NCBI RefSeq assembly: GCF_004364775.1
Contig: NZ_SOAL01000003.1
Span: 223,814-287,813 of the forward strand
Direction: 5' to 3'
Origin: Comamonas sp. JUb58
GTDB taxonomy: Bacteria; Pseudomonadota; Gammaproteobacteria; Burkholderiales; Burkholderiaceae_C
Length of the DNA stretch: 64,000 nt
Shown: positions 26,901 through 36,610 of the stretch, one piece after another
Layout of the letters: every line of letters begins with the position of its first letter
Position numbering within the stretch: the first letter of the stretch is position 1
Notes under the pieces: generated by a model
Database searches by the model: none
The model's input: only the letters and a program-made list of their open reading frames with translations
Told to the model about the DNA's origin: nothing
Translations under genes and position numbers: made by a program

Positions 26901-27018
26901 TGAGAGGTAGGTCCGGACTCAACTTGTCGTCAATGCTGGGTTTAGGTGTGAAACCCTATCGAAATTGTTAATTTAGTAGTTTTGAACTATCATTTTTCCA
27001 TTTTTGGTAGGAGTAAGC

Positions 27019-30000
27019 ATGTCAGGAAAGCCAGCAGCTCGAATAGATGACAAGGTCAAATACGCGCGGATAGTGACAGGTTCGCGCACCGTGTTGATTG
27101 GTACCCAAGGCGGGGTGGCGTGTTCCGTCTGCCCGGGCGGCAAGGCAGAGAGCAAAGATGATGGCAAGGGAATTGGCAACCCCGTCAATGCTCAGTTAGG
27201 CGCCAAAGTATTGTCTGGGTCTTCTGACTTGGACTTTGCCCTACCAGGCGCCATGCCCGTCGTCTGGCAGCGCCAGTACAGCAGCTATGTCAACGCGCAG
27301 CATGGCGGCCACTGCGGGGTGCTGGGCTATGGCTGGGGCCTTCCCATGGATTTGCGCATCAAGGTGGAAGCAAGCGCCACCTTGCTGCACGACAGCCAGG
27401 GCCGCACGATCACCTTTGATGCGCTGGCCGCTGGTGAATCCATCTACAGCCCGAGCGAAGACATCTGGCTGCTGCGCTCGGGATGGCATCTGGGCGACTT
27501 GACCAAAGACCTGGCCTCGATGACCGGGCCCGCCAAGTTCACTGAGCGCGGCGCCGCAGATAGCTTTGAAGCCCCACCTCCCCGCAGCCAGCAGGCGCCC
27601 TTGTGGTGGCAGGGTCGCTTCTCCTGGATCCGGCGCGATATGGCTTGCGGGGATTTGATGATCCTGGCGGCCAATGGGAGCGGTGATACCGTCTGGGTGT
27701 TTGGCCCGGCGAACTGGCAGGCGATTGAAGCGGCACGCAAAGATATCCATGAACAGAAGACCGCAGGCAAACCGGTCACGGTGACAGAGCCGGAGATCGA
27801 TGCAAACTGGATTTTGCTGGGCAAAGTAGACCGGCTGGGGCGGTCCCAGCGCTACCACTGGACCAAAGTGCTGGGCCAGGAGCGCATTACCACGATCGAC
27901 GATGGTGTGGGCCGGGGCTACCAATTGCACTACACGCAAGCCATTGCAGTGCAGGATGCCCAGCACTTTCACCACAAGCGCACGGACACCGACGACCACG
28001 AAGACGAACATTTCTTCTGGCAAGCCGACAGTGGCGTGCGCCTGGCAAAGGTAGATTTGTATCGCGACCCTTTGGCACCCATGCTGCAGACCAATCCCAC
28101 CACCTTGGTGCAGTACAGCTATAGCGACCAGGGCGATCTCACCTCCGTCACCAACCGTCACGGCCAGGTCGTGCGCCGCTTTGCCTGGCGCAACCACTTG
28201 ATGATTGCCCACCAGGAGCGCGGCGGGCCGGAGCACCACTATGCCTATGACCGCTACGAGCCAGGCGGCCAAGCCATCGAGCAGCGCAACCAGGAAGGCT
28301 TGGACTACAAGTTTGACTACCAGGAGCGACCGGAGGTAGATGGCCAGCCGAGGCGAGCATGTGTCGTCACGGATAGCTTGGGCCGGGTCGAAAAATACAT
28401 CTTTCAAGGTGAAGCCGGCTTAGCAAGATTGGTGGAACATACCCGCGCTGACGGAAGCACCATCAAACGCAAGTACAACCAGTACGGCCACTTAAGCGAA
28501 GTCACTGACCCGCTAGGCCGCAGCGTATACATGGCCGTCAGCCCCATGGGCCAGTTGCTGGCAACGCAAGGCCCAGACGGATCGCGCAGCAGCCAGCGCT
28601 TTGATGACAGCACCAACATGCTGCAAAGCAGTACCGACGCCGCAGGCCGCACCACCCACTACGAGTACGACTTTCACAACCGCCTGACGCGGGTGACCTT
28701 GCCGGATGGCAGCAGCGAGCAATACCACTACCCCAACATCACCGGCGGCCCCGCAGACCTGGCGACCCGCGCCAACGCCGACAAGCCCATCCGCATCACC
28801 GATGCGAATGGTCGCGACAAACATATTGCCTACACCCCCACCGGGCAGACCGCCAGCTACACCGACTGCTCAGGCCAAAGCACCCACTACGAATACAACC
28901 GCTGGGGCCAGACCACGGCGGTGCGCAATGCGCTGGGTGAGCGGGTGGCCTATGAATACAACGAGCAGGACCAGCTGCGATCCGTTTACTACCCTGATGG
29001 GAGCAAGGAGCACTACATCTACGATGCCCGGGGGCAGGTAGTCGAAGTGAAGGCCGGGCGCCGCGATGACAGAGATAAAAAAACTCCAGTCAGCACTACA
29101 GCACCCAGCGTGCGCATGGCCTATGACCTCTGGGGGCGTCTCGTGCAGCGCAGCCACGCGGGTCAGCATCTGGGCTTTGCCTACGACACCGCCGGGCGCC
29201 TGACCCTGCTCACCAACGAAAACGGCGAGCACACCCGCTTCACCTGGGATGTGATGGACCGCTTGGCCCAAGAAACCGGCTTTGACGCCCGGGTGCAGAG
29301 CTACCAATACGATGCGGCGGGCCAGCTTGTTCAATCTAGCGATGGCTGGGCGGCAGAGCAAGGCCTGGCAGCACACACCAGCCACTACGAGTGGACCATC
29401 ACCGGCCAATTGGCGGCCCGCCACCTACCAGCAACCGACCTGTTGCCGGCGACCACGCAGCGCTATGAATGGGGCAAGGTGGGCGAATTGCTGCAAGCGA
29501 GCGTGTGGCACCAAGTAGAAGAAGATGCTGTTGGACCCCACCGCCATCCAGCCCAAGAAGGCCTCCTGCAAAGCCAAGCAGTCATCGAACGCGATGCAGC
29601 CGGCCGGGTCATCGGCGAAGTCCAGCGCCTCTACAAAACCCCCACCCCGGACGAACTGCAAGACCAGTTCTTTACCCCCGAGATCGAGTTTGAACACCGC
29701 ATCAGCCACCAGCTAGACGCCCTGGGCCACCGCCAAGGCAGCCAGCTCCAAGGCCTGGGCAACGTCGGCTACCTGCTCTACGGCGCAGGCCACGTGCATG
29801 ACATCACCTGGCAAGGCGAGAGCCTGGTGAACTTTGAGCGCGATGCGCTGCACCGTGAGATTCACCGCCAAGTCCTCACCGACATCAATAGCCAAACCCC
29901 TGGCGAAAACACCGCCAAGCCGCTCTACCGCAAGCTCAGCTGGGATGCTGGCGGGCGCATGGAAACGATGCAGTGGATGGGTTTGGAGCAGGGTAGCGCG

Positions 30001-31809
30001 CTGGATGACATGCTTGCCACGCCCGGCGGGCAAGCCCCCAACCGCGTGCCACCAACGCTGCTGGGCGCCATGACCGCCCGCCAGTACTACTACGACAGCC
30101 TGGGCCAGATGGTCGGCATGCGCAGCCACGCGGGCATCAGCCGCTTTGCCTACGACGGAGCAGGGCGCCTGACAGGCGCGCACACGCCGCATGCTGGCTC
30201 CCAGCGCTGGCAGTTCGACCCGGCAGGCAATCGCCTTCCTACCGCTGGTCCCGAGACCAAGCCCACCGCAACCGACACCATCACCGGCCACCTCAACGAA
30301 ACAGACCGCCTGCGCGCCCAGCAACGCGCTGCAGTCCAAGCCAACCCCATCACCAAAGAGCAACTGCTGCGCAGCGACTTCAACCCGCTCCAAGCTCCCC
30401 CAGACCCCAGCAGTAACCAACCGCTGCACACCAGCAAACGCTGGGCCGGCAACCGCGTGGCGTATTACGAGAACCAAGAAGATGCGAGCAGCGCAGGCGC
30501 AAAGATCCACTATCAATATGACAGCCGAGGCAACCGCACCCAAAGCTTGGATGAGGCCACAGGCCGCAAGCTGGAGCTGGCGTATGACAGTGGCAACCAG
30601 TTGGGGCAGGTAGTCGTTGAAGAAGCAGGTCAGCGCCACACCCAGAGCTACCGATACGACGCGTTTGGGCGGCGTCTTGCTAAGTACAACGCGCCGAGCA
30701 ATGGCGGCTCAAGTGAAGAGAACGAAACAGACTACTTCGGTTGGGACGGAGATCGCCTGATCCACACCGAGCGCTTCAACAGCGCCAACGCCAAAGACGA
30801 CGATGGCGCAGCGCAACCAGAAGTCATCCACACCATCTACGAGCCAGGGTCGTTTACCCCACTCATCCAACTGCGCAGAGCCAGCAAAGCAGCGCCCGAT
30901 CTGGCGGAAGAACTCCTCGCTCAAATCCAGCCTGGCATCGCGCAAGAAGCGTTGCGTTCCATGTTCACGGACCTCAGCGCCACAACAGCGCGCATCAACG
31001 AGAACATCGGCAAGCTGGGCATCAGTGGCGATGTGCAGCGCTACATGCGCCAGCAGCTCCACGAGTTTGAGCAGGCCGTCAAAACCCAGCGCGAAGAAAC
31101 GGCGCAAAAGGTAGAGATCCGCCACTACCTCTGCGACCACCTGGGAACGCCTAATGCGCTGATCCGCGAGGACAGCCGGCTGGATTGGGCGGTGCAATTA
31201 GATGCCTGGGGGAATGTGCGGGCGGAGCATAACCCGGGTGATTTGTACCAGCCGATTCGGCTGCCTGGGCAGCATGCGGATGGGGAGACGGGGCTTTATT
31301 ACAACCGGCATCGGTATTATCAACCCCTTGCAGGGAAATATATAAATCACGATCCAATTGGCATTGAAGGCGGCATAAATACCTACGCTTATGGATTTCA
31401 ATCTCCTGCCATCCTCACTGATCCGACAGGGCAGTTCGTACCAGTTTTAGTAGGTATCGGGGCGGGGATTGCATTTGACTATTTCATAGAGAAATATAAA
31501 GAAAGAAATTGCTGCGATAAAGAGTTGTCATGCACAAATTCTCTTTTAGGTACTGAGGGAAATGCGGCCGTTGGTGGTGCCGTTGGAGCTACTGGGCCAT
31601 TTGATACCAAGCCGAGAACTGGTATTGCAGGTGGCGGCCGAGCGGGTTCTACCACCTCAGTTGCCAGCAAGATTAATCATGCGGCGTCCAAAAAAGGATA
31701 TTATTCAGTGCGCACTAGAAATTTAGTAACAAAGGGACTTAGAAAAGTGCCGTACTTGGGTGTGGCAGTTTCAGGCTATGAGATATATGATGCAACATCA
31801 TGTGAATAA
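27019..31809 (+). CDS. PAAR/Rhs polymorphic toxin, full-length effector
   Basis: A 1596-residue Rhs protein. The ATG at 27019 follows a GGTAGGAG ribosome binding site; a GTG upstream is less likely. The first 65 residues (KPAARIDDKVK, TVLIGTQGGVACSVCPGG) look like a PAAR-type spike domain, then a DUF6531-like part and many YD repeats (RFxYDxxGRLT patterns) forming the Rhs shell. The hyperconserved core ends at 31320 with LYYNRHRYY, followed by the self-cleavage-like LTDPTG. The last 125 residues (31432-31806) are a separate, AT-rich tip of unknown toxic activity. Such proteins are delivered by type VI secretion and cleave off the tip inside the shell. No vgrG or EagR gene is in the window. 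Confidence 0.9.
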   Translation: MSGKPAARIDDKVKYARIVTGSRTVLIGTQGGVACSVCPGGKAESKDDGKGIGNPVNAQLGAKVLSGSSDLDFALPGAMPVVWQRQYSSYVNAQHGGHCGVLGYGWGLPMDLRIKVEASATLLHDSQGRTITFDALAAGESIYSPSEDIWLLRSGWHLGDLTKDLASMTGPAKFTERGAADSFEAPPPRSQQAPLWWQGRFSWIRRDMACGDLMILAANGSGDTVWVFGPANWQAIEAARKDIHEQKTAGKPVTVTEPEIDANWILLGKVDRLGRSQRYHWTKVLGQERITTIDDGVGRGYQLHYTQAIAVQDAQHFHHKRTDTDDHEDEHFFWQADSGVRLAKVDLYRDPLAPMLQTNPTTLVQYSYSDQGDLTSVTNRHGQVVRRFAWRNHLMIAHQERGGPEHHYAYDRYEPGGQAIEQRNQEGLDYKFDYQERPEVDGQPRRACVVTDSLGRVEKYIFQGEAGLARLVEHTRADGSTIKRKYNQYGHLSEVTDPLGRSVYMAVSPMGQLLATQGPDGSRSSQRFDDSTNMLQSSTDAAGRTTHYEYDFHNRLTRVTLPDGSSEQYHYPNITGGPADLATRANADKPIRITDANGRDKHIAYTPTGQTASYTDCSGQSTHYEYNRWGQTTAVRNALGERVAYEYNEQDQLRSVYYPDGSKEHYIYDARGQVVEVKAGRRDDRDKKTPVSTTAPSVRMAYDLWGRLVQRSHAGQHLGFAYDTAGRLTLLTNENGEHTRFTWDVMDRLAQETGFDARVQSYQYDAAGQLVQSSDGWAAEQGLAAHTSHYEWTITGQLAARHLPATDLLPATTQRYEWGKVGELLQASVWHQVEEDAVGPHRHPAQEGLLQSQAVIERDAAGRVIGEVQRLYKTPTPDELQDQFFTPEIEFEHRISHQLDALGHRQGSQLQGLGNVGYLLYGAGHVHDITWQGESLVNFERDALHREIHRQVLTDINSQTPGENTAKPLYRKLSWDAGGRMETMQWMGLEQGSALDDMLATPGGQAPNRVPPTLLGAMTARQYYYDSLGQMVGMRSHAGISRFAYDGAGRLTGAHTPHAGSQRWQFDPAGNRLPTAGPETKPTATDTITGHLNETDRLRAQQRAAVQANPITKEQLLRSDFNPLQAPPDPSSNQPLHTSKRWAGNRVAYYENQEDASSAGAKIHYQYDSRGNRTQSLDEATGRKLELAYDSGNQLGQVVVEEAGQRHTQSYRYDAFGRRLAKYNAPSNGGSSEENETDYFGWDGDRLIHTERFNSANAKDDDGAAQPEVIHTIYEPGSFTPLIQLRRASKAAPDLAEELLAQIQPGIAQEALRSMFTDLSATTARINENIGKLGISGDVQRYMRQQLHEFEQAVKTQREETAQKVEIRHYLCDHLGTPNALIREDSRLDWAVQLDAWGNVRAEHNPGDLYQPIRLPGQHADGETGLYYNRHRYYQPLAGKYINHDPIGIEGGINTYAYGFQSPAILTDPTGQFVPVLVGIGAGIAFDYFIEKYKERNCCDKELSCTNSLLGTEGNAAVGGAVGATGPFDTKPRTGIAGGGRAGSTTSVASKINHAASKKGYYSVRTRNLVTKGLRKVPYLGVAVSGYEIYDATSCE
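31021..31320 (+). repeat. Rhs core-end direct repeat, copy 1
   Basis: About 300 bp at the end of the intact Rhs core (from ISGDVQ to NRHRYY) recurs at 32270-32569 with high identity and in part at 33518-33726. Identity ends sharply after CGGTATTAT, where the tips diverge. This junction would support homologous recombination between cassettes. Confidence 0.93.
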
Positions 31810-32161
31810 AGATACTAATAATATATCTTTTGAAGTACGAGACTGCCTTAAAAAATGTGGAGTCTCTAACAGACTAATAAAAAATTGCACAAGAAAAACT
31901 CGTCTGCTTCATGACTTAAATATATATGGAGATGTCGCTGAGAGTCTTATTGAAATGCTTGAAAAAGATCATGGCGTAAATATTCTTTATTTTGATTTTC
32001 AAAAATACTTTCCCGAGGAATTTTTTGGAGAGAATTTGATAGGAAAAATATTATTTCGCATAGTTCCGTTTACCATAATGATTGAAAAAAGAAAATCCAA
32101 ATACAATCCATTGACATTAATTCAAATTGAAAATGCCATAAAGAATAAATTTCTAACTTAA
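31790..32161 (+). CDS. DUF1493-family protein, candidate immunity protein for the intact Rhs tip
   Basis: A 123-residue protein with its ATG at 31790 inside the last 20 bases of rhs, which couples the two genes. It has the DUF1493 pattern: a TRLLHDLNIYGDVAESLIE block, then VNILYFDFQKYFPEEFF with the KYFPEE motif, and an acidic centre. Related proteins often sit behind Rhs or contact-inhibition toxins and neutralise them. The gene is strongly AT-rich, like the tip it follows. Position, overlap and family support an immunity role. Direct binding to the 125-residue tip is inferred. Confidence 0.72.
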   Translation: MQHHVNKDTNNISFEVRDCLKKCGVSNRLIKNCTRKTRLLHDLNIYGDVAESLIEMLEKDHGVNILYFDFQKYFPEEFFGENLIGKILFRIVPFTIMIEKRKSKYNPLTLIQIENAIKNKFLT

Positions 32162-32179
32162 CGCAAGGTCAATTTATCC

Positions 32180-33187
32180 ATGCCATCGAGTATTGAGCGC
32201 GCATGCAAGTGCCGCCACCGCTTTCTATTACGGCGAGGTCGCACAGCGAGAAATGACAGCCCATGCCGGATCAGTGACGATGTGCAGCGCTTCATGCGCC
32301 AGCAACTCCACGAGTTTGAGCAGGACGTCAAAACCCAGCGCGAAGAAGCGGCGCAAAAAGTCGAGATCCGCCACTATCTCTGCGATCACCTGGGAACGCC
32401 CAATGCGCTGATCCGGGAAGACAGCCGGCTGGATTGGGCGGTGCAATTGGATGCTTGGGGGAATGTGCGGGCGGAGCATAACCCGGGTGACTTGTACCAG
32501 CCGATTCGGTTGCCGGGGCAGCATGCGGATGGGGTGACGGGGCTTTATTACAACCGGCATCGGTATTATGAGTCAGGAATGGGTAGATATATTAATCCAG
32601 ATCCTATCGGAATTTTTGGAGGGGTAAATTTATTCTCATATGTGGGAAATGCATCAAATATTTATGCAGATCCTTTAGGGCTAGTGAGATGGTCCGAAGT
32701 TGTTAATAACGGTCTTGGCATATTAGGAAATACAGGTGGCGCTGTAGTGGGAGTCGCATTACTTGCAGCACCTGAACCAACTACGCTAACAAAAATTGCT
32801 GGAGGCGCAGTGCTTTCAAAATCCATATACGGGTTGGGAACCAGCTGGTACGGTTTCACCAGAGCATTCAGTGATGATTCCGGATATGATATTTCACCAG
32901 ACAGGGCAACATTAGCACGTACTCTTGTTTGCGTTGCTGGATGCAATGACGCAGGAAGACGGGTTGCTGATGCATTAGATTTAGGACTCGATTTAGCAGA
33001 TGGGAAAGTCCCAGTAAACAATAAAATAAAACTTCCTATAACTTGGGGAATGGATGTGGATCCGCCGTGGAAACAACCCGTTAGTAGTATGTTTACAAAT
33101 TCACAAAACAACTCATTAAACTTACTTCAGGGATCTGCCGCACTCCAGAGCATGATAAGTTCAACGGACGCAATTTGCAAAAAATAA
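32180..33187 (+). CDS. Displaced Rhs C-terminal cassette 2 with a hydrophobic tip
   Basis: A 335-residue open frame. The first 30 residues are unrelated to Rhs; from 32270 it repeats the end of the Rhs core, then passes the YADPLG cleavage-like motif into a tip of about 170 residues. The tip has a Gly/Ala-rich hydrophobic part (LGNTGGAVVGVALLAAP), a KSIYGLGTSWYGFTRAFSDD block and a C-rich stretch. The ATG at 32180 has no convincing ribosome binding site, so it may act as a recombination donor rather than be expressed. The tip is clearly related to the one in cassette 3. Its stop shares one base with the next ATG (TAATG). Confidence 0.8.
   Translation: MPSSIERACKCRHRFLLRRGRTARNDSPCRISDDVQRFMRQQLHEFEQDVKTQREEAAQKVEIRHYLCDHLGTPNALIREDSRLDWAVQLDAWGNVRAEHNPGDLYQPIRLPGQHADGVTGLYYNRHRYYESGMGRYINPDPIGIFGGVNLFSYVGNASNIYADPLGLVRWSEVVNNGLGILGNTGGAVVGVALLAAPEPTTLTKIAGGAVLSKSIYGLGTSWYGFTRAFSDDSGYDISPDRATLARTLVCVAGCNDAGRRVADALDLGLDLADGKVPVNNKIKLPITWGMDVDPPWKQPVSSMFTNSQNNSLNLLQGSAALQSMISSTDAICKK
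32270..32569 (+). repeat. Rhs core-end direct repeat, copy 2
   Basis: Near-identical to 31021-31320, with scattered base changes (for example ATCAGTGACG for ATCAGTGGCG) and the same reading frame. The repeat marks where the displaced cassette joined the array. Confidence 0.93.
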
Positions 33188-33474
33188 TGTGGATAAAAAT
33201 AAATGCAAAACTTCTTATTTGTCATTTCGATAAGTATGGATACATGTGTTCCGGTTTGTTGTCAGTGCTAATGAATTTAGCTCTAATTGTAAAAATAAAA
33301 TATGACCACTTACCTTTTTTTATTTTTCTTCTTCTATATGGTTTTATATTTCTTTACGGCTTAGAGGCTGGGCACAAGGGATATAAGAATAATAAAAATC
33401 ACAAGGTTTTTTTTCTGCTTTATGTAGTTCCGTATTTAACGTCAGCGATTTTTATAGTATTTAACTTTGTTTAA
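33187..33474 (+). CDS. Small membrane protein A, candidate immunity to cassette 2 tip
   Basis: A 95-residue protein whose ATG at 33187 overlaps the cassette 2 stop by one base. It has three to four hydrophobic segments (about residues 22-38, 44-60 and 74-95). A short cytoplasmic turn, EAGHKGYKNNKNHKVFF, resembles the Y-[E/D]-H-G-Y-x-I motif of three similar genes at 35474, 35800 and 36199. AT-rich, with no known domain. Gene overlap with a hydrophobic toxin tip and the membrane location fit an immunity protein, as in pairs such as Tse5-Tsi5 where a small membrane protein blocks a pore-forming Rhs tip. Confidence 0.65.
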   Translation: MWIKINAKLLICHFDKYGYMCSGLLSVLMNLALIVKIKYDHLPFFIFLLLYGFIFLYGLEAGHKGYKNNKNHKVFFLLYVVPYLTSAIFIVFNFV

Positions 33475-33517
33475 TTGTACGGCAGACAATTCAGTTCTCT
33501 TTCGGCTAGATTAGCCA

Positions 33518-33726
33518 GCGAGTACCGCTAACACCTTTGCGACCACCTGGATACGCCCAATGCGCTGATCCGGGAAGACAGCCGGCTGGACTGGGCTGTG
33601 CAATTGGATGCCTGGGGAAATGTCCGGGCGGAGCATAACCCGGGTGACTTGTACCAGCCGATTCGGTTGCCGGGTCAGCATGCGGATGAGGTTACAGGGC
33701 TTTATTACAACCGGCATCGGTATTAT
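33518..33726 (+). repeat. Rhs core-end direct repeat, copy 3 (partial, mutated)
   Basis: This part matches the last 200 or so bases of the core repeat, from CTGCGACCACCTGG onward, up to CGGTATTATGAGTCAG. Upstream homology is mutated: a TAA occupies 33529-33531 where the other copies read through. It marks the join of cassette 3. Confidence 0.88.
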
Positions 33727-34365
33727 GAGTCAGAGATTGGAGACTACATTAATCAAGATCCAATCGGATTGGTTGGAGGGCTAAATAAAAAATCCTATGT
33801 GGGAAGTAGCCCATTAACGTATCACGATCCCGTCGGGCTCATTAGATGGGCGGATGTAGGTAGTAACACGGTTGGTGCAGTAGGTTCTGGTGCCGGGGTT
33901 TTCCTGGGGGCTGCACTATTTGCTTTCCCGAGTGGAGTGTCTCAAGTTGTCGGTGCTGCAATGTTTTCAAAATCGATATACGGATTTGGAGCAAGTATGT
34001 ATGGGCTTGCTAGAGCATTTAGTGATGATGCTTCTTACGATATGCCAAGCAAATATCAGACTCTGCCAAGAGTAGTGGCTACGTCGATCAGTTGCAGCCC
34101 AAATGCAGAGCGCTATGCAGATGCGGCTGAGCTTGCACTGGATTTGGCAGCCGGGAGGCTGCCAGCGGGCTTCAAAAACAATCCAAGTGGCTACTTAAGA
34201 AACTCGGTGGGGTATCCGCAAATAGATAGTAGTAATTTCACTTCACCTGCAACTTATTCAGCAATTTCATCTCAGGAGCTGAATGCGCTCTCGAATTTAC
34301 TTCAATTAACTCAGGGCGGTCTCAAATCCGAAGCGCAACACCGCTGCCTGATTGAAACGGTTTGA
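33518..34365 (+). pseudogene. Displaced Rhs C-terminal cassette 3, truncated by IS30
   Basis: From the core repeat the frame runs on (GTG at 33598 is the first possible start, with no ribosome binding site), through HDPVG, into a tip related to that of cassette 2. Shared parts are the VxRW-like opening, a Gly/Ala-rich hydrophobic stretch (VGAVGSGAGVFLGAALFAFP) and SKSIYGFGASMYGLARAFSDD. An in-frame TAA at 33529 and a shortened core argue against an intact gene. The last 17 codons before the stop at 34363 belong to the inserted IS30, so the real C terminus lies beyond it, near 35473. Confidence 0.82.
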
Positions 34366-35443
34366 GAGTCAGTGAATGGTAGCGGCTTGTCGCTGCGCAA
34401 TCGCCTGCACGAACTGCTTAAACGCCTGGTACGGAGACTTCCATTCCAGCGTCTGGCGCGGCCGGTTATTCATCAGGTCGGCAATGGAATCCAGTGCATC
34501 TTGGTCATGCACACCCAGGTCCGTCCCCTTGGGCAAGAACTGGCGCAGCAAGCCATTGGTGTTCTCGCAGCTGCCTCGCTGCCAAGGACTGTGGGGATCA
34601 CAGAAGTACACCCGCACACCCGTTGCCTGGGCCAACTCCCGATGGCGGGACATCTCCTTGCCCTGATCGTAGGTGAGCGTCTGGCGCATGGGCTGGGCCA
34701 CCTGGTTGAGCTTGGCCGTGAAGGCCGCCAAAGCCGACTGGGCCGTGGCATCAGGCATGCGGCACAGCAGCACCAGGCGCGTGCTGCGCTCCACCAGTAC
34801 ACCCACGGCAGACTGGTTGTTGGCTCCCTTGATCAGGTCCCCCTCCCAGTGCCCAGGCATCAGCCGGTCATTGACCTCGGGAGGGCGCACATGAATGCTG
34901 ACCATCTCTGGAATCTGGCCCCGCCGGTCCTGCCCTGCTGAACGAGGCCTGCGGCCGCTGCGTCCCCAGCGCAGCAGCGCAAGCAGCTGCTTCTTGAGTT
35001 CCCCGCGGGGATAGGCATAGATGGCGTTGTAGATCGTCTCGTGAGACACATGCTGGCTGGATTCCTCGGGGTTCATGCTGTGCAGTGTGCGGGCAATCTG
35101 CTGGGGCGACCAACGCCACAGCAAAAGATGACAGACCACGTGCCACAAAGCGCCATGCGGGTGCAGCTTGGGCAGGGGTCGAGAGGCGATGCGACGGGCT
35201 TCACAGGCCGCCTGCGCAGGCTTGAAAGCATAGCCATCAGAGGTCGAACTATTGCGGGAAAGCTCACGGCAAATGGTGCTGGGGCTGCGCCCGAGCAGGT
35301 GGGCAATGGATCGTTGGCTGTAGCCCTGCTGCAAAAGAGAAGCCACAGTCAAGCGATCTTCTGGCTGCAAGTGTGTGTATCGTGAAGTCATCTGTGCAAA
35401 TTACCTGGGGCTCAGGTGTTGCACTTCAAGTTTGAGACCGCCC
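34314..35443. mobile_element. IS30-family insertion sequence
   Basis: About 1.13 kb bounded by imperfect inverted repeats that begin GGGCGGTCTCAAA (34314 inward, and complementary from 35443). About 26 of the first 29 bases match between ends. One long open frame, the IS30-type transposase, fills it on the minus strand. A clear target-site duplication was not found in the flanking bases, perhaps because the insertion is old or small deletions occurred. It interrupts the Rhs cassette 3 tip. Confidence 0.88.
34369..35391 (-). CDS. IS30-family transposase
   Basis: A 340-residue transposase. It opens with a helix-turn-helix containing RLTVASLLQQGYSQRSIA and LGRSPSTICRELSRN. The catalytic part has GHWEGDLI (first Asp), TYDQGKE (second Asp) and WQRGSCENTNGLLRQF (Glu), the DDE arrangement of IS30, plus the RPRQTLEWKSP tail. 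It cuts and pastes the enclosing element. The gene looks complete and GC-rich, unlike the AT-rich DNA around it, which shows the element is an incomer. Confidence 0.95.
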   Translation of the reverse strand: MTSRYTHLQPEDRLTVASLLQQGYSQRSIAHLLGRSPSTICRELSRNSSTSDGYAFKPAQAACEARRIASRPLPKLHPHGALWHVVCHLLLWRWSPQQIARTLHSMNPEESSQHVSHETIYNAIYAYPRGELKKQLLALLRWGRSGRRPRSAGQDRRGQIPEMVSIHVRPPEVNDRLMPGHWEGDLIKGANNQSAVGVLVERSTRLVLLCRMPDATAQSALAAFTAKLNQVAQPMRQTLTYDQGKEMSRHRELAQATGVRVYFCDPHSPWQRGSCENTNGLLRQFLPKGTDLGVHDQDALDSIADLMNNRPRQTLEWKSPYQAFKQFVQAIAQRQAATIH

Positions 35444-35473
35444 AGTCATTTCTATATAGCAAAGATGCAGTAA

Positions 35474-35725
35474 ATGCGAATTCAAATTAAAGTTCTTCTG
35501 ATTGTTTTTTATTTGATAATGAGTTTTAACATTTGCATTAATATTCCAGATTTGAAAGATAAAGTTGTAGTCATTTTTTTCTTTGTTGCGCTGCAATTAT
35601 CGATGGTATATGAGCACGGTTATAAAATTTTTGCTAAAAATCAAAGAAACAAGATTTTATTTTTAATGGTGTATCTTATTCCATTAATGGTTACCTTATA
35701 CATTTGTGCATCAGTCTATGTTTAA
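35474..35725 (+). CDS. Small membrane protein B, candidate immunity to cassette 3 tip
   Basis: An 83-residue protein with the ATG directly after a TAA at 35471-35473. It has an N-terminal hydrophobic segment (about residues 5-22), a middle one (31-45) and a C-terminal one (62-82), with the motif SMVYEHGYKIFAKN between. It belongs with proteins A, C and D. If the IS30 is removed, the frame ending at the TAA continues the cassette 3 tip, so B would follow that toxin as protein A follows cassette 2. It is short, hydrophobic and AT-rich; no enzyme function is evident. Confidence 0.65.
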   Translation: MRIQIKVLLIVFYLIMSFNICINIPDLKDKVVVIFFFVALQLSMVYEHGYKIFAKNQRNKILFLMVYLIPLMVTLYICASVYV

Positions 35726-35799
35726 GTAGATTAGGGTAGCTCGCGTTCCGTGTAAGTGCGTGCATATTTTGATGTGACATGAAACTTAGGGCTGGCTAA

Positions 35800-36044
35800 A
35801 TGAAGCTATATGCAATAATAGGTAATTTGGTATTTTGTTTATTTATTTGTGCTAATGTCATTGAATCTCGAGGAAGGCTCATTAGAATTATTTTTTAATC
35901 ATTCTGCAGATGTGTATGATATACGAACATGGCTATAGGATATTCTTCAAGGATGGGTATAGGAAGATATTCTACGCAATTTATATTGCGCCTTTCTTGC
36001 TGACGGTGTTTGTTGTTTTCGCATATTCTAATAAAGCTTTGTAA
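35800..36044 (+). pseudogene. Frameshifted small membrane protein C of the same family
   Basis: An ATG at 35800 opens a frame that encodes a hydrophobic start (MKLYAIIGNLVFCLFICANV) and stops after 32 codons. In another frame, from about 35910, MCMIYEHGYRIFFKDGYRK and a hydrophobic tail continue to a stop at 36042-36044. Joined, the two halves would give a protein of about 75 residues with the family motif EHGYRIFF. A frameshift near 35900 broke it. This is a decayed orphan immunity-like gene. Confidence 0.65.
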
Positions 36045-36198
36045 AAGCTACTGTTGATTCGCCTAAATCTGATCGATTAGGCGTATTAATTGGTTCGTTC
36101 TCCGTTTCTCCTCATGTGAAGCTATATATGAAGCTGAATGAAAGGATTAGAGATTTGTGGCGATTTCAGACTTGGTGGTGAGCTTGGGAAGCTGAAAA

Positions 36199-36435
36199 AT
36201 GAGAATTTTTCCGATAGTGATGTATTTGCTTTCATCTGTGTATATTTTCTTGAGTATTTATAATTCTCAATATCAATTAATCGGAAATGCTTTTCAGATT
36301 TCCTTGTTATTCTGCTTATTATATGATCATGGATATAATATTTATTATAAAAAAGGACGCAGAGCGGTGTTTTTAATAAATTACATCATTCCTTTTATTT
36401 TGGTTTTTTGTATATTTGTTAAAAGTGAGCTGTAG
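36199..36435 (+). CDS. Small membrane protein D, orphan immunity-like
   Basis: A 78-residue protein with hydrophobic segments at about residues 4-20, 28-41 and 58-73, and the motif LLYDHGYNIYYKKGRRAVFL matching B and C. No toxin tip lies next to it in the window, so it may be an orphan copy kept against tips met from kin. A weak purine-rich ribosome binding site (GGGAAGCTG) precedes the ATG. Upstream of the gene, at about 36060-36083, a hairpin CGCCTAA/TTAGGCG is visible. AT-rich. Confidence 0.6.
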   Translation: MRIFPIVMYLLSSVYIFLSIYNSQYQLIGNAFQISLLFCLLYDHGYNIYYKKGRRAVFLINYIIPFILVFCIFVKSEL

Positions 36436-36610
36436 CGATGCGTCTAAAATGATTGTTGTATTCAGTTGAGTGGCGAAGATAGCAGCTTGCGAATAATCCG
36501 ATGCACATCGATCGCTGGGGCGCAAAGTGTCGAGAACATCACTCCGCACAATGGCACGTATGCAGATCTCTGCCCTATAGTTCTGCCAATGCCCACTCCG
36601 CCCCACCACC

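What the first reader, a model, noticed from the sequence alone, without database searches (positions are those of the whole stretch)
31021..36435. Rhs tip-swapping array with three core-end repeats and a paralogous toxin-immunity set
An intact PAAR/Rhs effector is followed by two displaced cassettes. Each repeats the last 200-300 bp of the Rhs core and then carries a new tip. The core repeats would let the intact rhs gene exchange its tip by homologous recombination. Tips 2 and 3 are related to each other but not to the expressed tip. Displaced rhs tips are known in other bacteria; this arrangement with an expanded small-membrane-protein family behind it is less usual. Function of the tips is unproven.
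Basis: partly seen in the sequence, partly recalled or inferred. Interest (0 to 1): 0.85.

Follow-up and report, generated by a model that had tools for sequence, protein, structure and literature searches.

The report
Spare toxin tips behind rhs gene
A bacterial rhs gene, whose last part likely encodes a toxin used against rival bacteria, is followed by two spare last parts, each preceded by a copy of the gene's joining stretch; relatives carry one of the spares fused to full-length rhs genes, so it is likely a swappable reserve of a kind already known from other bacteria.

Summary
The three core-end repeats are real: 31021-31320, 32270-32569 (94% identical) and about 33519-33726 (89% over 202 bp). 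Homology stops right after the YYNRHRYY motif, and three different tips follow. Tip 2 and its small membrane ORF (TAATG overlap) are intact. Tip 3 is not: an IS30 element (34315-35442) sits inside its 3' end and separates it from its likely immunity ORF. The finding does not mention it.

A Comamonas Rhs of 1608 aa carries tip 2 (94%) in frame on the same kind of core (90% to this one, 94% to another Rhs core of this genome). A Delftia Rhs carries it on a different core, behind VgrG and followed by a homologue of the small membrane ORF. No carrier of tip 3 was found in 53 genus genomes. The 9.7-kb island is absent from the same site in three relatives; a fourth has an rhs there with another tip and no cassettes.

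This is a new member of a known kind (orphan rhs-CT/rhsI modules; PMC3150448, PMC3967940). Open oddity: no TssC, TssK or Hcp was found in this genome.

The parts
26903..36570 (.). rhs island of 9,668 bp between a conserved quinone oxidoreductase gene and a LysR-type regulator gene
   Evidence: absent from the same site in 3 of 3 relatives aligned there with both flanks (G015, G040, G019; flanks 30-60 bp apart); a 4th, G029, has an rhs there
27019..31809 (+). full-length rhs gene (ATG at 27019 inside ORF 27004-31809), weak PAAR-like N-terminus, tip 1
31021..31320 (+). core-end repeat, copy 1 (ends with the codons for YYNRHRYY)
31321..31809 (+). tip 1 (the tip joined to the full-length core)
31787..32161 (+). 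likely immunity gene of tip 1, overlapping its end; DUF1493-like, below cut-off (18.5 bits, cut-off 21)
32270..32569 (+). core-end repeat, copy 2, 94% identical to copy 1
32570..33187 (+). tip 2, displaced, open reading frame continuous with copy 2
33187..33474 (+). small membrane ORF (95 aa, 3 predicted hydrophobic stretches), start overlaps the tip 2 stop (TAATG); likely immunity of tip 2
33519..33726 (+). core-end repeat, copy 3, shorter (89% over 202 bp)
33727..34314 (+). tip 3, displaced and cut off by IS30; the ORF runs on to 34365 in IS sequence
34315..35442 (-). IS30-family element, transposase ORF 34369-35391, 27-bp inverted repeats, CAG duplicated on both sides
35474..35725 (+). small membrane ORF (83 aa) beyond the IS; likely immunity of tip 3
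35800..36044 (+). frame-broken copy of the small membrane ORF (pieces in two frames)
36199..36435 (+). small membrane ORF (78 aa), paralogue of 35474-35725

Best explanation
The locus is a full-length rhs gene followed by two displaced tip cassettes that each begin with a copy of the gene's core end; the intact first cassette likely serves as a spare tip that would be joined to an rhs core by homologous recombination in that shared stretch, while the second is split from its likely immunity gene by an IS30 element. Shown: the repeats, the sharp homology boundary, the reading frames, the IS, the occurrence of tip 2 in frame on full-length Rhs proteins elsewhere, and the presence of a related small membrane ORF behind tip 2 in G052 (Delftia). 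Inferred: that the tips are antibacterial toxins, probably acting at the membrane; that the small membrane ORFs are their immunity proteins; that new tips arrive by recombination at the core end and push older tip-immunity pairs downstream; and that recombination between copies 1 and 2 would load tip 2 and delete tip 1 with its immunity gene unless the locus is first duplicated.
For: Repeats and boundary. Tip 2 in frame on full-length Rhs: P0003 (Comamonas sp., core 90%, tip 94% over 179 residues) and P0002/G052 (core 31%, tip 66% counted from RHRYY on, 71% counted after DPxGL). A related small membrane ORF 301 bp behind tip 2 in G052. A sister species has another tip at the same site, and three relatives lack the island. 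Further displaced core ends at C1, C9 and C2 of the same genome (C1 and C9). Precedent: in Salmonella, rhs main and orphan share 522 bp at 95% identity and evolved lines recombine them (PMC3967940, passages and Discussion read); the orphan rhs-CT/rhsI modules of Dickeya dadantii behave as toxin-immunity pairs (PMC3150448, passages).
Against: The last 156 bp of copy 2 are not closest to copy 1, so recent exchange within this locus is not visible. The shared stretch is shorter than in Salmonella, and the longest identical run between copies 1 and 2 is 35 bp. No carrier of tip 3 was found. The P0003 tip is 23 residues shorter, with its last 3 residues different. No toxicity or immunity was measured, and the tip model has low confidence (pLDDT 40). 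TssC, TssK and Hcp were not found in this genome, so delivery is unclear.
Confidence: 0.75

Rival explanations
1. The cassettes are remains of replaced tips, and selection keeps only the small membrane immunity genes, which protect against neighbours that still use the old tips.
For: Tip 3 is split by IS30 while a small membrane ORF behind it stays open, and three related small membrane genes, one of them broken, lie in a row. Effector displacement with retained immunity genes is described in Vibrio cholerae (PMC5361080, abstract, opening text and section list), and orphan immunity genes behind rhs in Serratia (PMC10539506, passages). Strings of immunity genes for a membrane-depolarising toxin are known in the type VII system (PMC9484751, abstract and section list).
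Against: Tip 2 is intact with its core end in frame, and one of the three small membrane copies behind tip 3 is itself broken.
Confidence: 0.35
2. The displaced cassettes are expressed on their own and act inside the cell as toxin-antitoxin modules.
For: Both cassettes have an ATG or GTG in frame. An orphan RHS in Salmonella is reported to act as a type II toxin-antitoxin module (PMC7043789, title and start of abstract in search listings).
Against: No start signal was tested. The ATG of cassette 2 lies in sequence without core homology. Tip 2 elsewhere sits on full-length Rhs.
Confidence: 0.1
3. The repeats are an assembly error.
For: Several other rhs genes of this draft genome end at contig edges (C14, C46, C23, C9 end).
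Against: The three copies differ by 6-11%, lie inside a 288-kb contig with different tips and genes between them, and a displaced core end also occurs in the single-contig genome G019.
Confidence: 0.02

Closest known systems
Orphan rhs-CT/rhsI modules (Salmonella Typhimurium LT2 rhs main/orphan, PMC3967940; Dickeya dadantii rhsC locus, PMC3150448)
   Same: Full-length rhs followed by core-end fragments with new tips and small genes behind them; the orphan tip is found on full-length Rhs elsewhere; a shared homologous stretch could allow fusion
   Different: Shorter homology (300 bp at 94% here, 522 bp at 95% in LT2); two related tips in the array; third cassette split by IS30; small membrane ORFs as likely immunity; no T6SS core genes found in the genome; no recombinants or toxicity shown
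Tse5/Tsi5 (RhsP1) of Pseudomonas aeruginosa (PMC9637101; PDB 8cp6)
   Same: Best PDB match of this Rhs by sequence, in the core; PAAR-like but atypical N-terminus; immunity is a membrane protein (Tsi5 has two predicted transmembrane regions)
   Different: Tip 2 has no PDB sequence match up to E 10, so no link to Tse5-CT (tip 3 not searched); pore formation by tip 2 is only a guess
Orphan immunity arrays (Serratia Rhs1 locus PMC10539506; Vibrio cholerae T6SS clusters PMC5361080)
   Same: Extra immunity-like genes kept behind an effector locus
   Different: Here tip remnants are still present in front of them; protection untested

Membership tests
Orphan rhs-CT/rhsI module | Fragment downstream of a full-length rhs, carrying a piece of the conserved core and a variable C-terminal tip, without the N-terminal part | tested here: met
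Orphan rhs-CT/rhsI module | Small immunity-like gene directly behind the tip | tested here: met
   tip 2: TAATG overlap with ORF 33187-33474, and a homologue behind tip 2 in G052. Tip 3: separated by IS30
Orphan rhs-CT/rhsI module | Same tip found on full-length Rhs elsewhere | tested here: met
   tip 2: P0003 and P0002. Not met for tip 3 in 53 genus genomes
Orphan rhs-CT/rhsI module | Tip is toxic and blocked by its immunity protein | not testable with these tools
   needs expression in a laboratory strain
T6SS PAAR-Rhs effector | PAAR domain at the N-terminus | tested here: inconclusive
   PF05488 14.4 bits, cut-off 27, partial
T6SS PAAR-Rhs effector | A T6SS machine in the same genome | tested here: not met
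   TssK PF05936 0 of 1; TssC PF05943 absent here, found in 14 of 53 genus genomes; Hcp PF05638 absent here, found in 2 of 6 genomes; one VgrG at C9
IS30 family | IS30-type transposase, terminal inverted repeats, short target duplication | tested here: met
   NF033563 310 bits, cut-off 80; inverted repeats and CAG/CAG flanks

The most novel reading that the evidence does not exclude
This Comamonas-like lineage keeps a genome-wide library of Rhs tips, with displaced core ends at four loci and the same kind of core at several, in a cell without a T6SS machine, so these Rhs proteins are either delivered by an unrecognised route or kept as an immunity and kin-recognition library that exchanges tips between paralogous loci.
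Probability: 0.15. Interest if true: 0.6.

Novelty: new member of a known kind. Interest (0 to 1): 0.35.

Why it matters
It extends the orphan-tip model, shown experimentally in Salmonella, to a Comamonas-like genome, with a natural full-length carrier of one displaced tip, an empty site in relatives, and a sister species with another tip at the same site. It adds a tip family with no Pfam or NCBIfam match above cut-off that occurs with small membrane proteins and is possibly a membrane-acting toxin. A genome without detectable T6SS core genes but with several such loci would make the question of T6SS-independent Rhs function directly testable.

Tried and rejected
Two scans of genome contigs with tip 2 (single protein and two-row alignment) found no relative, although genome search found G052. 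The plasmid collection gave 1136 records with a match to core end plus tip 2, none covering 80% or more; the 20 listed matches end within about 45 residues after the RHRYY motif. The AlphaFold2 model of core end plus tip 2 has mean pLDDT 40, so no fold search was run. The small membrane ORF model has three helices at mean pLDDT 67, and its protein search gave three relatives, all on contigs of 1.1 to 6.2 kb whose surroundings were not available. Tip 2 has no PDB sequence match up to E 10.

I considered recent duplication or gene conversion between copies 1 and 2. It is not supported over the last 156 bp, although over 300 bp the two copies are each other's closest (94.0%; next 92.3% and 91.3%). 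I rejected the assembly error (see rivals). The core piece of cassette 3 in the script was cut out of frame and gave no hits; it is not used. The motif searches did not list the C2 locus; its displaced core end rests alone. Of the five LysR matches outside this genome (at most 43 candidates scored per genome), four sites were compared; G021, a partial match, was not. One search printed only DNA matches longer than 60 bp. Tip 3 included residues encoded by the IS; it was cut at 34311. Of the paper searches (10 of 29 and 8 of 8 papers listed), only the Tse5 and CDI ionophore papers were used.
Full report
What is there. The window lies in contig C3 of a 5.46-Mb genome in 60 contigs. No call names the organism; the nearest protein relatives bear the names Comamonas and Delftia. 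A full-length rhs gene (27019-31809) ends in tip 1 and is followed by an overlapping small gene (31787-32161) with a sub-threshold DUF1493 match. Two more copies of the last part of the core follow, at 32270-32569 and about 33519-33726, 94% (300 bp) and 89% (202 bp) identical to the first. Similarity drops right after the codons for YYNRHRYY: for copy 1 against either cassette it falls from 92-98% to 56-58% between the 50 bp before and the 50 bp after. Each copy then brings its own stretch with both DPxG motifs and its own tip. That DPxG motifs take part in self-cleavage of Rhs proteins is recalled, not tested. Cassettes 2 and 3 are open in the Rhs frame.

An IS30 element (transposase NF033563, 310 bits) lies at 34315-35442, with 27-bp inverted repeats and CAG on both sides, inside the 3' end of tip 3. 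It is the only full copy found in the genome, 40 of 81 candidate places having been scored; the other match is 106 bp at 76%. The tip-3 ORF therefore ends in IS sequence, and the small membrane ORF 35474-35725 lies beyond the IS. Behind it come a frame-broken copy (35800-36044) and ORF 36199-36435. The first and last are clear paralogues (z 11.4 over 500 shuffles). ORF 33187-33474 behind tip 2 is only weakly similar to them (z 4.2 and 2.4), but is a clear relative of the ORF behind tip 2 in G052 (z 20.7).

Do relatives carry the spare tips on full-length Rhs? For tip 2, yes. Among 53 genus genomes (own included) tip 2 is found in 2: here and in G052, where it is part of an open frame of 1430 codons. 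That G052 gene (ORF of 1412 aa) lies 54 bp behind a VgrG gene (PF05954, PF22178 and PF04717 above cut-off), and a 96-aa membrane ORF that begins 301 bp further on matches ORF 33187-33474 at 39%. In a drawn set of 399 family genomes 3 have a match, own included. The third, G239, has the tip in two frames behind an Rhs core at 36.5%. In the protein collection the search with the G052 protein found two proteins: P0002 (G052 itself, named Delftia tsuruhatensis) and P0003, a Comamonas Rhs of 1608 aa. The search with the displaced ORF found three shorter ones (P0004-P0006; Comamonas piscis, Delftia acidovorans, Comamonas sp.), two of them labelled partial. P0003 has a core 90% identical to this Rhs over 1434 residues and tip 2 at 94% over 179; its tip is 23 residues shorter and its last 3 residues differ. 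Its core is nearer to the C19 Rhs of this genome (93.6%) than to the Rhs of this locus (90.2%), so tip 2 occurs on a paralogous core. For tip 3, no: only the tip-2 kin appear.

The site. In G015, G040 and G019 the flanking genes are adjacent (30-60 bp between the matching flanks) and no match longer than 60 bp to 26903-36570 is seen there. In G029 the site, judged from its LysR side because the contig ends inside the gene, has an rhs with a different tip and no cassettes. The island is thus variable at a fixed site. Other loci of this genome have displaced core ends too: C1, C9 and C2 (C1 and C9). Similar tips sit on different cores across species. Of nine pairs of loci compared, the C19 tip is 92.4% identical in DNA to that of G019a and the C1 tip 89.0% to that of G019c, against 87.8% and 84.4% for the core stretch before the core end. 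Three pairs with related tips go the other way (C19 and C14: tip 81.4%, core 86.8%; C14 and G029b: 86.6% and 88.3%; C19 and G029b: 79.2% and 84.8%), and in the other four the tips are much further apart than the cores.

How it likely works. New tips would arrive by homologous recombination at the core end and push the resident tip and its immunity gene downstream, core-end copy included. Later recombination between core ends would load a stored tip again. In Salmonella LT2, main and orphan rhs share 522 bp at 95% identity, and evolved lines carry main-orphan junctions and deploy the orphan tip; the authors propose prior duplication of the locus so that immunity is kept (PMC3967940; passages and Discussion read). 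Here the stretch is 300 bp at 94%, with a longest identical run of 35 bp, so switching would probably be rarer. Over the last 156 bp the two copies are not closest to each other (94.9%, against up to 96.8% and 97.4% to other loci), so there is no sign of recent exchange inside this array.

What the tips do. Beyond the Rhs core, tips 2 and 3 match no family above cut-off in Pfam or NCBIfam; both have the same sub-threshold match to DUF4781 (10.4 and 11.2 bits, cut-off 27.9). Tip 2 has no PDB match. Each of the three tips has one hydrophobic stretch by a simple Kyte-Doolittle scan, and the small membrane ORFs have two or three. A membrane-acting toxin with a membrane immunity protein, as for Tse5/Tsi5 (PMC9637101, passages) or the CDI ionophores (PMC11630599, passages), is a guess by analogy. 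The full-length Rhs is closest in PDB to Tse5 by sequence of the core.

Delivery. No TssK, TssC (found in 14 of 53 genus genomes) or Hcp (found in 2 of 6) was found in this genome, which is rated 100% complete. One VgrG lies near another Rhs at C9. G019, a single-contig genome with several Rhs of this family, also lacks TssC and Hcp. G029, which has the same family, has both. T6SS delivery is therefore not supported for this strain, and the PAAR match is below cut-off.

Novelty. Orphan rhs tips, their exchange and their presence on full-length Rhs elsewhere are in print (PMC3150448, passages; PMC3967940; PMC10539506, passages). One search for Comamonas, rhs and type VI secretion together gave two papers, neither on this subject by title and start of abstract. 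Two further searches (12 of 66 and 2 of 2 papers listed) showed none on Comamonas rhs tips by title. I file it as a new member of a known kind.

Noticed in passing
window genome G000 and G019: No TssC or Hcp found (and no TssK in G000), although both genomes hold several Rhs genes of this family; one VgrG in G000.
   Followed up: partly
34315-35442: IS30 element inside a displaced rhs tip; the only full copy found in the genome, 40 of 81 candidate places scored.
   Followed up: yes
P0003 (Comamonas sp. Rhs, 1608 aa): The in-frame tip 2 is 23 residues shorter than in this window, with its last 3 residues different; a real truncation or a sequencing error cannot be told apart.
   Followed up: no
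L033/L034 (G239): A tip 2 relative in another genus of the family lies in two reading frames behind an Rhs core.
   Followed up: partly
G000 contigs C14, C46, C23, C9 end: Four contigs begin or end inside rhs genes, so the draft assembly breaks at rhs cores and the count of rhs loci is uncertain.
   Followed up: no
L011 6610-7395: The C1 rhs locus also has a displaced core end (78% protein identity to this core over 55 residues) with a tip of its own.
   Followed up: partly
L073 (G029): A displaced core end with another tip also occurs in the sister genome G029, behind an rhs in a different contig from the syntenic one.
   Followed up: partly
32684-33184 and 33841-34362: Both displaced tips have the same weak, sub-threshold match to Pfam DUF4781 (10.4 and 11.2 bits, cut-off 27.9).
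   Followed up: no
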